Of a DNA stretch of 64,000 nucleotides, positions 30,824 through 35,400 are shown one piece after another. Position 1 is the first letter of the stretch; each line of letters starts with the position of its first letter. Source of the stretch: Planctomycetota bacterium (GTDB taxonomy: Bacteria; Planctomycetota; Planctomycetia; Planctomycetales; Planctomycetaceae); assembly GCA_022600195.1 (NCBI GenBank), contig JAHZKX010000003.1, forward strand, positions 1 through 64,000. The letters are read 5' to 3'. The position numbers were made by a program, and so were the translations under genes. The notes under the pieces are model-generated. The model was not told the DNA's origin, did no database searches, and saw nothing but the letters and a program-made list of their open reading frames with translations.

Positions 30824-32470
30824 CTATAAATTCATCGCTTCAAAAACCCGATCAAGTCGGTTCTGAGAGCAAAGCCCCACATCCGCCGAAACCATCAGTT
30901 CGGGATATTGCAAACCAATTCGCGATGTCATTTCCAACATCAAATCTTTGATGATTTCCACATTCCTCACAAAGCGTGCTTTTAACGTCTTATCATCCAA
31001 TTCTTCCGACAGTTCTCCATTCAACTGAATCAAAATTTCGATAGAACGTTGATCAACAAATGTCGCATCGATGAACGCGACGTCTTCTCGATCATGCCAC
31101 TCACGAAAGAATTGCTGCATCTGCACATTCAATGCCCGCATTGCTTCAATTTCTCGTGACAATGACTGAATAAAAGCAGGTTCGGTCAGTTTATCCTGAA
31201 AATACAATAAAGCTGGAAAACTCCAGTACAAGGCATAATCCCAAACATATTTCAATGACATAATTCGCGGATTCCCAAATAAGGGATACTGTTCCTGATA
31301 TGCTAATAAATTGTTCTGGAACAATGTCATAAAAATACTTTGAAAGGCGGGCGCCAAATGGGTAACCGGTCGATTCGCCAAATCGCTTGTAATCAACTCC
31401 GTAATCATCGTATTGCCGATTGCGATATAATCGATGCCCGGCGAATAAAATGGATCGAGAAATACGCCTGCTTCACCTGTCAACGCCCAACGATCTTTAG
31501 AAAAGACCTGCCGACACCCACGGGCGAGTCGTTTCATTGCCATGAAGTCTTTCAACTTATCTCGATGCGGCTCCAGCCTCGCTGCACATTCTGGTTCGTG
31601 AATGTGTAACCATGCGAGTGCTTTATCAAAGCGGTTCAAGTCATTGAGTTGATGTAGTCGGGGATCAAACACAATCCCCAAACTGGTTGCACCAGATGAC
31701 AACGGAATAATCCAGACCCAATACCCAGACCCCAACAGATGATTCGTGCTTAACCAGCGACGTGGAATCCGCCCTGTGCGTTGCCTCCATTCGGGCTCAT
31801 CACACCATTCATCAACGCGAATTTCGGCATCCAATCGAAACCAGACCGCATTAATATTATGATCAATTTCTTCGGCGAGATTTAATTTTCGTTTCAAAAA
31901 ACTCTGTCGACCACTGGCATCAATTAACCAGCGACATTCCAGCGAGCAAGGCTCATGATTCTGTTCGTATTCAATACGATGCAACGAAGATTCTGGATCC
32001 GGCGCCATTTCAATCTGTCGTACATGGGAATCGGGGATTAGTTCGGCCCCCATTTCCTGAACCATTCCGGCAAGATAATTCTCTAACCGACCTCGATCGA
32101 CTTGATATCCCGGAGCTGGAAAAAAATCACTCGTACCCACTTCCGTACCGGCGGACATCGGCTGATCGTGGGGGCTGAAGAAAAACCGCAATCCTAATTT
32201 TGGCAAATGTTGATCGACTAAATGCTTTTTCAGTTTGAGCCGTTCCCCTAAATAATGGGCTCCAATTTCTACCGTTGATTCTCCTACCTTATGTGAGGCT
32301 TCTGGAACAGGGAACGTTTTCTTCTCGATAATTGTGATCGAAGTTTCCGGGCGCTGCATCAACACTTGTCTGGCAAGTGTCAAACCGGCTAATCCTCCGC
32401 CTATGACCGCAACATCACAATGGTCTTTTTCCATTTGGGTGCCGTTTTCTCCACGTCGAGCTTGACTCAT
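30824..32470 (-). CDS. Flavin-dependent halogenase-like oxidoreductase 2
   Basis: This 548-residue paralogue of the downstream gene has GGGLAG (24-29), [11 protein letters not shown] (60-70), a candidate catalytic K91 in [10 protein letters not shown] and WxWxIP at W251-P256, followed by [17 protein letters not shown]. Its start codon overlaps the PKS stop (ATGA at 32470-32467), so it is translationally coupled to the PKS and almost certainly works on its product. Another ATG 12 codons in (MEKDHCD) also lies before the Rossmann strand. No flavin reductase is present in the locus, so reduced FAD would come from elsewhere in the cell. Halogenation is inferred, not shown. Confidence 0.75.
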   Translation of the reverse strand: MSQARRGENGTQMEKDHCDVAVIGGGLAGLTLARQVLMQRPETSITIIEKKTFPVPEASHKVGESTVEIGAHYLGERLKLKKHLVDQHLPKLGLRFFFSPHDQPMSAGTEVGTSDFFPAPGYQVDRGRLENYLAGMVQEMGAELIPDSHVRQIEMAPDPESSLHRIEYEQNHEPCSLECRWLIDASGRQSFLKRKLNLAEEIDHNINAVWFRLDAEIRVDEWCDEPEWRQRTGRIPRRWLSTNHLLGSGYWVWIIPLSSGATSLGIVFDPRLHQLNDLNRFDKALAWLHIHEPECAARLEPHRDKLKDFMAMKRLARGCRQVFSKDRWALTGEAGVFLDPFYSPGIDYIAIGNTMITELITSDLANRPVTHLAPAFQSIFMTLFQNNLLAYQEQYPLFGNPRIMSLKYVWDYALYWSFPALLYFQDKLTEPAFIQSLSREIEAMRALNVQMQQFFREWHDREDVAFIDATFVDQRSIEILIQLNGELSEELDDKTLKARFVRNVEIIKDLMLEMTSRIGLQYPELMVSADVGLCSQNRLDRVFEAMNL

Positions 32471-35400
32471 TTAACCGCACTCCCCGCTTGGACTAAGTCA
32501 GAAATCCAATAGCGTTTACGATCAAATGGATAGGTAGGCAAACTCATTTTCTGTGGTTCCAAATTGGCATATGAAGCCACTAGATCCAATGGACAACCAC
32601 CCACAAAAAGGCTTGCCAATGTCCTTGTGATCGAACAAGGCGATTCACCATTCGATTGTATACCTGGTAGCAATGTTAAAGATTGTTCTTCCGCCAATTT
32701 TTCGGTCACTTCATTAACTGCTTGGCCAACTCCAATTTCTAAAACCAGTTCACAGTTCATTTCGATAACACGCGCCAACGTTTCAGCGATATTCTCCTTC
32801 GCGACGGCATGTTCTCGCCAGAAACTCCCCGCCAGTAATTGCTGCATGGGTACCGCTTGACCGGTCAAACTGTTTAATATCAGACGATTCGCTGGAAAGT
32901 AATTCAAGGTATCAGCGAATTCTTCAAATTGTTGTAACACCGCTTTTGTAGTTTCATCAAGATTGCTCTCATCAGTTGTAGGCCGAGATGACGTCATACT
33001 TGAGTTCTTGAGCAGTCGATCCCGTTCGACGATCAGTTTCAAGCCTTCCTCAGGACTCAACATGCCGGTAAAAATAGCAGCCGCATATTGACCAATTCCA
33101 AAACCAGCTACCACGTCGGGTTCGACACCATGCACTTGCCATACTTCGGCTAACCCAAGTTGGCAAACGAATTGAATCACGTCCAGCGGCAAATCAGATG
33201 CATTCTTTTCGCCTGTCGAATCGTCAAACCAGCTAGTCAAATCAACAGTCGTTGAGTCTGAATCGGAGTTCGTCAGAGATTGATAGACTCCGTTCAAGCG
33301 GTCAACCAGCTCTCGAAACGGATATTGCTGTTGATAGAGAGATTTCGCATACACTAAATCCTGAGCACTCGCATCACGAAACACCCACCCCAGTTTCGGA
33401 GACTCTTTCACATAGCCTGCTAAGAAACCGTCGCTGTCCAAACCCAATTGAGTATGATCGGCTTCAGTCTTCGTCAATTGCTCATCTAACTCTTGTAAGC
33501 GAGCAGCCATCTCCTCCTGAGTTGCCCCCATCACTCCAATTCGATAATCAAAAACGCGGCGACCCGTTGCGGCTGTAAAACAAAAGTCGGTGAGATTCAC
33601 CTCTTCGTTCACCGACAGATAATTATAATATCTAGCAACGGTCTCTTTTAAACTTGAAATTGACTTTGCAGACATGGTTAATAGCTGAACTGGAGAATCA
33701 TCGGACCGCTCGGCAACGGTTCGTCTCTGTGACACTCTGTGTTTCGATTGCGAGCTTAATATGACATGTGCATTCGTGCCCGCTAATCCGAGTGCCGTCA
33801 CTGCCGCAATTCGCTCTTCAGTTTCTGGCCAGACAGTCTGCTCTTGCACCATATCAAGTGACAAGCGTTTCCACGGGATATGGGGGCTCGGTTCTTCACA
33901 GTGTAATTGTGGAGGAATCACGCCATGTCGCATCGCGAGTACGGCTTTGATGAGTCCGGAAATCCCCCCGGCTGCTTCCAAATGGCTAATATTGGCTTTC
34001 ACCGATCCGACTAACAAACGATTATTCTGATTTCGTCCACGGCCAAAAACCGCAGCAGCAGCCGTCAATTCCATCGGGTCTCCGTACTCGGTTCCCGTTC
34101 CGTGGGCTTCCAAATATTGAACCTGTGCAGGCTTGACCCGTGCGTCTTGTAAAGCATCTTGAATCAAGCGGCTTTGAGAGCGACTGTTCGGAGACGTAAT
34201 ACTGCTGCTGAATCCGTTATGACTGATCGCCCCGCCACGCACGACCGCTAAAACCTGATCGCCGTCACGTTCGGCATCGGCTAAACGTTTCAGGACAACG
34301 ACACCACAGCCTTCACCGCGTCCAAATCCATCAGCCCCTGCAGAAAATGATTTGCAGCGTCCATCCGGTGAAAGCATTCCTGTTTTGGCCATCAACAGCG
34401 AATTAAAAGGCGTGAGAATTGCATTCACGCCTCCTGCCAGTGCCATATTACAGTGACCTTCCTGTAAACTTCGCATTGCCTGGCAAACAGCAACCAGCGA
34501 ACTACTACTCGCCGTATCAATTGCCAAACTGGGCCCTTCAAATCCGAATGAATAACTGATGCGCCCCACACCAGCACTATGTGAAAAACCGGCCCCTTGG
34601 AAATCGGCTAAAATACTATGGTTTTCCAGCGTCGATAGCGACGCATAATCTGAGGACATAATCCCCATGAACACGCCGACATTCGAATCCTGCAGCGGAT
34701 ACGGCTTCACACCCGCATCCTCGAGAGCGGTCCAACAATTTTCGAGCAACAATCGATGCTGCGGATCGAGCCAACAAGCCTCTTCCTTTGAGATACCAAA
34801 AAAGTCGGCATCGAAACAATCGATATCATCCAGAAATCCGCCTTCCTTGGTATACATCGTGCCGGGCTCCCGGTCCGGACTGTAAAATGCATTCACATCC
34901 CAACGGTCCGCAGGAACTTCCCGTACCGAATCAACACCGGCGAGCAAGTTCTCCCAAAATTCGTTAACATCTTTTGCTCCCGGAAAACGGCAACTCATGC
35001 CAATAATCGCAATATCATCTCTGGTAAGCTGGTCGGTAGAACCAAGTACGGAGACTGATTCCCCACCTGTCGCTGGTGTTCCTGTCTCAACTTGGGGTGA
35101 TTCCGTTTCAGCCGCATCGTCGATCATGCTGAGTACATGCTCAGCAATGGCGGTAATCGTTGGATGATCAAACAACATCGTGGGGGAAACCGTATAATCG
35201 TCGCCCAACATCGATTGGAGTTGCATGCTGAATTCGACCGCCATCAACGAATCCATGCCCATCTCAATTAACGGTCGATCAACTTCAGGTGCTTCAGGCG
35301 TTGACAAGATTTGTTGAAATTGGTTCTGAACTGTATCAATTATTAGTTGTTGACGCGCTGAACCTTGTAACCTTTTCAACTTTCCGACCATCTCGGAATC

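What the first reader, a model, noticed from the sequence alone, without database searches (positions are those of the whole stretch)
32467..35000. Terminal KS-AT pair with both nucleophiles replaced (Cys to Ser, Ser to Gly)
In the second KS the active site reads DTASSSS (codon AGT at 34507-34509) while both histidines and the rest of the fold are kept. In the following AT, GHSxG became GFGIG (GGA at 33097-33099) and the HAFH subdomain is deleted. Coordinated loss with an intact reading frame suggests a kept non-condensing role, such as a chain-length-factor-like partner, decarboxylase, or Ser-dependent acyl transfer/release element.
Basis: partly seen in the sequence, partly recalled or inferred. 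Interest (0 to 1): 0.88.

Follow-up and report, generated by a model that had tools for sequence, protein, structure and literature searches.

The report
Terminal serine ketosynthase in planctomycete PKS
A polyketide-making enzyme in planctomycete bacteria ends in a second chain-building domain whose key cysteine has long been a serine; it is clearly kept for another job, most likely taking over and releasing the finished chain.

Summary
KS2 reads DTASSSS (Ser2033, AGT, 34507-34509), both histidines are kept, and AT0 reads GFGIG (Gly2503, 33097-33099) without HAFH.

It is not decay. All 21 distinct copies read carry Ser and Gly, and scans not selecting on Ser showed no Cys copy. KS2, with KS1, is the most constrained domain (dN/dS 0.03-0.04), AT0 the loosest (0.21-0.27). 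KS2 is one clade, sister to KS1: an old internal KS-AT duplication, then changed function. Copies occur in planctomycetes, one Verrucomicrobiales MAG and one unassigned MAG.

The cassette is ammonia-lyase, ligase-ACP, PKS (KS-AT-DH-KR-ACP-KS2-AT0), two halogenase-like flavoproteins, often an RND exporter. FAD1 relatives lie in xanthomonadin-type loci, so an aryl polyene product is likely (inferred).

Best reading: an ACP-less exit module. KS2 takes the finished chain from the ACP onto Ser and releases or transfers it; AT0 is scaffold. No release enzyme recurs in 23 loci; CalA3 is a published precedent. A CLF-like partner or decarboxylase is not excluded. Nothing was tested biochemically.

The parts
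33751..35019 (-). KS2: second ketosynthase domain, residues 1863-2285, Cys replaced by Ser
   Evidence: Pfam PF00109/PF02801; model pLDDT 85.1, pTM 0.90; one clade of 20 rows, SH-aLRT 100
34507..34509 (-). Ser2033 codon AGT at the KS nucleophile position
   Evidence: Ser in 21 of 21 copies
34102..34104 (-). first active-site His of KS2 (His2168, HGTGT)
   Evidence: motif in 20 of 20 KS2 rows
33982..33984 (-). second active-site His of KS2 (His2208, in KANISHLEAAGG)
   Evidence: motif in 20 of 20 KS2 rows, one of them with NIGH
32470..33435 (-). AT0: degenerate acyltransferase domain and post-AT linker, residues 2391-2712
   Evidence: Second Acyl_transf_1 stretch; HAFH absent, 55 residues shorter than AT1 between two motifs
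33097..33099 (-). Gly2503 codon GGA at the AT nucleophile position
   Evidence: Gly in 21 of 21 copies
32467..40605 (-). PKS gene, KS1-AT1-DH-KR-ACP-KS2-AT0 (likelier start ATG at 40584)
39226..40500 (-). KS1, residues 36-460, DTACSSS
37906..38865 (-). AT1, residues 581-900, GHSVG and HAFH
36961..37803 (-). DH, residues 935-1215
35446..36168 (-). KR, residues 1480-1720
35116..35358 (-). ACP, residues 1750-1830, the only ACP of the PKS
40804..42909 (-). acyl-activating ligase with C-terminal ACP and terminal docking-like coil
   Evidence: Pfam AMP-binding and PP-binding; coil
42952..44598 (-). aromatic ammonia-lyase, probably phenylalanine type
   Evidence: Pfam PF00221; cyanobacterial PAL structures among the best PDB matches; Phe at the aligned selectivity position in 9 of 9 (meaning of the position recalled)
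30824..32470 (-). FAD1: flavin halogenase-like protein, overlaps the PKS stop by 4 bases
   Evidence: Pfam Trp_halogenase; WxWxIP; relatives in xanthomonadin-type loci
29076..30743 (-). FAD2: second flavin halogenase-like protein
27583..29013 (-). HlyD-type RND adaptor
24464..27586 (-). RND efflux permease

Best explanation
KS2-AT0 is an ACP-less terminal exit module on a single reducing, probably iterative PKS module. Cinnamate made by the ammonia-lyase is loaded by the ligase-ACP and handed through docking coils to KS1. KS1-AT1-DH-KR-ACP adds malonate-derived double bonds. The chain on the ACP either goes back to KS1 or forward to KS2. KS2 takes it onto Ser2033 as an oxygen ester that does not condense, and releases it to water or to an unidentified acceptor, using the kept His-Lys-His. 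AT0 is a structural remnant that holds the KS-AT fold. Competition between KS1 and KS2 would then also set chain length. Shown: the anatomy, conservation, constraint, duplication origin and recurrent gene set. Inferred: docking, iteration, the acyl-Ser step, release, and the product.
For: KS2 is kept whole: Ser in 21 of 21 copies; HGTGT-type and K..H.E motifs in 20 of 20 KS2 rows; dN/dS 0.032-0.040 against 0.205-0.270 for AT0. KS2 directly follows the only ACP of the protein, and no ACP follows it. In 23 loci compared, the only gene families found in three or more are FAD1, FAD2, PKS, ligase-ACP, RND permease, PAL and HlyD, so no thioesterase, hydrolase or acyltransferase recurs (repeated without the overlap filter, same seven). 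KS2-specific residues cluster at the nucleophile, around the second His, at the gate (Phe to Leu at 2272, 19 of 20) and in the loop 2002-2013. [quoted passage not shown]). Conserved coils at the ligase-ACP C terminus and the PKS N terminus fit loading of KS1, so KS2 is not needed for priming.
Against: CalA3 keeps its Cys, so release does not need Ser, and its C197A mutant hydrolysed more, not less. The KS-S domains seen in print sit in loading modules, not at the end. The KS2 model does not separate KSQ from ordinary KS. An unlinked thioesterase elsewhere in the genome was not looked for. The flanks compared differ in length and several are cut by contig ends, so a release gene further out would be missed.
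Confidence: 0.42

Rival explanations
1. KS2 is a type I counterpart of a chain-length factor: a non-condensing paralogue that pairs with KS1 and shapes the tunnel in which the polyene grows.
For: KS1 and KS2 are sister clades from an internal duplication, as KS-alpha and KS-beta of type II systems are paralogues (recalled). Type II aryl polyene synthases use KS-CLF pairs (PMC8358021 and PMC3691225, passages). KS2 loop 2002-2013, mapped by recall to the dimer and tunnel region of FabF, is rebuilt, with bulky residues of KS1 replaced by small ones (F to A, L to G).
Against: KS2 keeps both His, the Lys and the Glu, which a mere partner would not need. [quoted passage not shown] About 1400 residues separate KS1 and KS2, and type I KS normally form homodimers (recalled). 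No complex could be predicted here.
Confidence: 0.2
2. KS2 is a decarboxylase of the KSQ/KS-S kind that turns malonyl-ACP into acetyl-ACP, as a starter when no aryl starter is at hand or as an editing step.
For: Residue pattern Ser plus His-Lys-His as in KS-S of polyene loading modules such as RimA (PMC4540446, passages). KSQ didomains rank first for the KS2 model, practically tied with ordinary KS.
Against: It sits at the end of the protein, with a dead AT and no ACP behind it. The cassette already makes and loads an aryl starter. In NysA the Ser replacing the Cys did not appear to be the residue that matters for decarboxylation (cited in PMC4540446). Decarboxylating the extender would waste it.
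Confidence: 0.15
3. KS2-AT0 is a non-catalytic scaffold that stabilises the dimer.
For: AT0 has lost its nucleophile and evolves fast. CalA3 has several structural domains.
Against: KS2 is as constrained as the working KS1, including its active-site residues, and has its own fixed active-site substitutions.
Confidence: 0.12
4. The module is recently decaying and has no function.
For: Two catalytic residues are lost and AT0 is loosely constrained.
Against: 21 of 21 copies share the state; KS2 dN/dS is 0.032-0.040; the copies span planctomycetes and a Verrucomicrobiales MAG.
Confidence: 0.02

Closest known systems
CalA3 of calcimycin biosynthesis, ACP-less chain-release PKS module (PMC10006239, first part and passages)
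   Same: Terminal module without ACP; KS is the catalytic domain; AT likely inactive; no dedicated release enzyme otherwise found in the cluster.
   Different: CalA3 is a separate protein with DH and KR, keeps the KS cysteine and joins an aromatic amine. Here the module is fused behind the extending module, has Ser, and the acceptor is unknown.
KS-S domains of polyene loading modules (RimA, NysA; PMC4540446, passages)
   Same: Ser in place of the KS cysteine; not expected to condense.
   Different: They stand at the start of the assembly line, in front of an AT and an ACP; this one is at the end behind the ACP, with a dead AT.
KSQ decarboxylase domains (PikA1, GfsA structures)
   Same: KS fold with replaced Cys; best-ranked fold matches (7uwr, 8in9).
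   Different: Gln in place of Cys (recalled; the PikA1 alignment shows Q), loading position, working AT.
Chain-length factors (ApeC of aryl polyene systems, ORF16 of Lysobacter; PMC8358021, PMC3691225, passages)
   Same: Non-condensing KS-like partner in aryl polyene synthesis; a KS paralogue.
   Different: Separate protein about half the size of a KS, conserved Gln in ORF16; KS2 is full length, fused, has Ser and keeps the catalytic His and Lys.
Xanthomonadin-type aryl polyene clusters
   Same: Halogenase relatives of FAD1 (42-48% identity) beside stand-alone KS genes.
   Different: Those use type II enzymes; here one type I PKS and an ammonia-lyase starter route.
RerA, iterative type I polyene PKS of Rhodococcus (PMC11563203, passages)
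   Same: Type I PKS with one KS-AT set, KR and DH making polyenes.
   Different: Tandem ACPs and a partner protein with a thioesterase; no second KS-AT.

Membership tests
ACP-less chain-release PKS module (CalA3 kind) | terminal KS-containing module without ACP | tested here: met
   Pfam order and protein end
ACP-less chain-release PKS module (CalA3 kind) | KS nucleophile Cys kept | tested here: not met
   Ser in 21 of 21; so I do not file it as a member, only as working like one
ACP-less chain-release PKS module (CalA3 kind) | release by acyl transfer shown | not testable with these tools
   needs an assay
KSQ/KS-S loading module | Cys replaced by Gln or Ser, His and Lys kept | tested here: met
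KSQ/KS-S loading module | at the start of the assembly line with a working AT and an ACP behind it | tested here: not met
   C-terminal position, AT0 without Ser and HAFH, no ACP behind
Chain-length factor (KS-beta) | KS paralogue without the Cys nucleophile | tested here: met
Chain-length factor (KS-beta) | forms a heterodimer with the condensing KS | not testable with these tools
   No complex prediction at this length
Chain-length factor (KS-beta) | catalytic His and Lys lost (feature recalled) | tested here: not met
   Motifs kept in 20 of 20
Aryl polyene biosynthesis | aryl starter supply and activation | tested here: met
   Ammonia-lyase and ligase-ACP, by homology
Aryl polyene biosynthesis | stand-alone type II KS and CLF | tested here: not met
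   The recurrent gene set holds a type I PKS and no stand-alone KS
Aryl polyene biosynthesis | aryl polyene product | not testable with these tools
   No chemistry available
Flavin-dependent halogenase (FAD1, FAD2) | FAD motif, WxWxIP and conserved Lys (features recalled) | tested here: met
   WxWxIP in 23 of 23 FAD1-labelled and 22 of 22 FAD2-labelled rows. The FAD1-labelled L089 row, which is a different paralogue on that locus, and the cut L079 FAD2 row lack the FAD and Lys motifs

The most novel reading that the evidence does not exclude
The duplicated KS2 is both exit gate and chain-length ruler. In one polypeptide a Cys ketosynthase and its Ser paralogue compete for the chain on a single ACP, so length and release are set by a ketosynthase pair within one chain: a type I answer, reached independently, to what the KS-CLF pair and a separate release enzyme do in type II aryl polyene pathways.
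Probability: 0.25. Interest if true: 0.82.

Novelty: new variant of a known kind. Interest (0 to 1): 0.6.

Why it matters
How iterative PKSs count and when they let go is a long-standing question. Here a single-module PKS with an invariant Ser-ketosynthase right behind its only ACP has been kept in planctomycetes and in a Verrucomicrobiales MAG, in a short cassette in which no release enzyme recurs. That makes the question testable by point mutation and deletion in one protein. It also points to a probable family of cinnamate-primed, possibly halogenated type I aryl polyenes in bacteria whose natural products are little known.

Tried and rejected
Recent decay or sequencing error was rejected: the same state is in 21 of 21 copies and KS2 dN/dS is low.

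Origin of KS2 from a loading-module KSQ or KS-S clade could not be tested. The plasmid collection gave no close relative: best listed identity 52.9% among 40 of 678 records listed. The four plasmid loci fetched gave seven KS rows, all Cys, from three loci (L160, L161, L163); none was extracted from L162. No KSQ or KS-S sequence entered the tree, so kinship with those remains open.

Foldseek and VIA-align did not discriminate between KSQ and ordinary KS. No CLF was seen among the rows listed for the KS2 model; that is no evidence against one. A KS1-KS2 complex could not be modelled (length limit).

The regex meant to list active-site Cys motifs of the stand-alone KS in the proteobacterial loci found none, so their active sites were not established.

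The first gene-recurrence count used a longest-ORF filter that dropped the true FAD1 and FAD2 of L089; it was repeated without the filter, with the same seven families.

Codon use at Ser2033 was checked (AGC 17, AGT 4 of 21) and added nothing. A GDSL-type protein (21462-22937) was considered as a release enzyme and dropped, because it is not among the recurrent families.

Literature: 10 searches. None of the listed titles or abstract starts described this cassette or a terminal KS-Ser with a dead AT. That covers the held open-access library only, and I opened five papers, by passages (PMC8358021, PMC3691225, PMC4540446, PMC11563203) or by the first of eight parts plus passages (PMC10006239).
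Full report
What is there. The window lies in a 6.58 Mb genome (G000) with planctomycete-type proteins nearby (PSCyt, DUF1501). On the minus strand, from 44598 down to 24464, are an aromatic ammonia-lyase, a ligase with ACP, a PKS, two flavin halogenase-like proteins, a HlyD adaptor and an RND permease. The PKS reads KS1-AT1-DH-KR-ACP-KS2-AT0. KS1, AT1, DH, KR and ACP carry working-type motifs in nine orthologues, with small deviations: the Gly of the DH HxxxG motif is Glu in two of nine, and one AT1 of nine reads QAFH. The genome has eight KS matches in all; these two are the only ones in a long PKS frame.

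Ser2033 (34507-34509) stands where KS1 has Cys, Gly2503 (33097-33099) stands where AT1 has Ser, and HAFH is gone.

How widespread it is. Relatives search: 4 of 17 genomes of the genus, own one included, have the full module (G000, G002, G003, G015). Class search: 8 of 397 genomes have a KS2-AT0 match over nearly the full length at 887 bits or more; five of these lie outside the genus, in three families by the handle table. Phylum search: 3 of 392, all in this genus. Search around the Verrucomicrobiales MAG: 1 of 337, that MAG itself. In the last three only the two best candidates of each genome were scored, so these are lower bounds. The cassette is thus patchy and rare. A scan of named genomes with FAD1 (387 relatives, best 80 kept) gave 19 close loci (L072-L089 and L094). 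Of these 19, 15 show KS2 with Ser on the locus, L089 was completed from its genome (L153), L083 holds AT0 only, and L076 and L088 hold no PKS on the locus; the L088 genome has one elsewhere (L152).

Conservation. Five of the named loci are the same contigs as handle genomes already read. Without them, 21 distinct copies were read: Ser 21 of 21, Gly in AT0 21 of 21, HAFH absent 21 of 21 (L153 in context). One reads DTASSSA and one DSASSSS. The latter (L152) also keeps NIGH where the other 19 of 20 complete KS2 rows have NISH. KS relatives outside this clade have Cys: 42 of 42, and also the non-orthologous KS read. Some of them have a degenerate AT of their own (L167, L070, L192), so AT loss alone is not special.

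Selection. Pairwise Nei-Gojobori dN/dS among four same-genus copies (four pairs): KS2 0.032-0.040, KS1 0.034-0.063, AT1 0.092-0.153, AT0 0.205-0.270. Mean pairwise identity over nine orthologues: KS1 79.1%, KS2 78.2%, ACP 70.8%, KR 67.9%, AT1 60.0%, DH 54.0%, AT0 39.0%, and the structural psi-KR stretch 38.2%. So KS2 is a working part, and AT0 is a looser, still constrained one.

Origin. In a tree of 81 KS rows, KS2 (20 rows) and KS1 (16 rows) are each one clade (SH-aLRT 100) and sisters (SH-aLRT 90; quick tree, no bootstrap, several long branches elsewhere). The simplest reading is a KS-AT duplication inside this PKS before the planctomycete and Verrucomicrobiales copies parted, with Cys to Ser once, early. 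Transfer of the cassette between phyla is not excluded.

The pathway around it. The ammonia-lyase matches an entry named histidine ammonia-lyase best (9eq5), then cyanobacterial PAL structures, and has Phe at the position aligned to the PAL selectivity Phe in 9 of 9 (meaning of the position recalled). The ligase-ACP ends in a conserved acidic coil and the PKS begins with a conserved coil, which fits docking of that ACP to KS1 (inferred). FAD1 and FAD2 carry halogenase-type motifs, and 61 of 61 more distant FAD1 relatives (L090-L151 without L094) have WxWxIP. In 48 of 56 loci L096-L151 a KS-like gene lies on the same locus. In the Xanthomonas locus L129 the neighbours include a KS, a FabG-type reductase, an HpnN/RND-like transporter and an acyltransferase. 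PMC3691225 (passages) describes halogenase genes near the KS/ORF16 pair in such clusters of Xanthomonas and Variovorax, and the half-size CLF-like ORF16. Hence an aryl polyene-like product is likely. Iteration of the single module is inference; one round, giving a phenylpentadienoyl product, is not excluded.

Mechanism. Across 23 loci only seven gene families occur in three or more: FAD1, FAD2, PKS, ligase-ACP, RND, PAL, HlyD. No release enzyme does. KS2 sits where the next module would take the chain from the ACP, has a Ser-His-Lys-His set, and has neither a working AT nor an ACP to extend it. CalA3 shows that an ACP-less terminal module can release a chain with its KS (PMC10006239). KS-S domains are known from loading modules (PMC4540446), where they are thought not to condense. 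I therefore put the exit-module model first (0.42), then a CLF-like partner (0.20), decarboxylase (0.15), scaffold (0.12) and decay (0.02); the rest is something else. Against a simple analogy, CalA3 itself uses Cys, and its C197A mutant hydrolysed more.

Limits. There is no biochemistry, no complex model, and no KSQ, KS-S or CLF reference in the tree. Papers were seen as passages or parts only, as stated.

Noticed in passing
40584-40605: The PKS ORF is listed from TTG; the ATG at codon 8 precedes a conserved docking-like coil and is the likelier start.
   Followed up: partly
32467-32470: PKS stop and FAD1 start overlap by four bases (ATGA), suggesting translational coupling.
   Followed up: no
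21462-22937: GDSL-like hydrolase near the cassette (weak Pfam match); not among the genes recurring in related loci.
   Followed up: partly
L167 (G474:C127): Another PKS of the phylum has a Cys KS followed by an AT reading GVGVG, so AT loss without the KS change occurs elsewhere.
   Followed up: no
L088 and L089: In these two MAGs the cassette is rearranged: FAD2 divergent from FAD1, then adaptor and RND; in L089 then ammonia-lyase, ligase and PKS.
   Followed up: partly
L079:1883-9983: The PKS of this MAG is split over two reading frames within AT1, a frameshift or assembly error.
   Followed up: no
L090-L093: FAD1 relatives at 46-48% in Sulfidibacter, Acanthopleuribacter, a Holophagae MAG and a gammaproteobacterial MAG, without this PKS on the locus.
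   Followed up: no
G408, G409, G410 (genomes of L091, L092, L093): Each gave 85 or 86 KS-AT matches, at the scoring limit of 86 candidates: an unusually large PKS complement.
   Followed up: no
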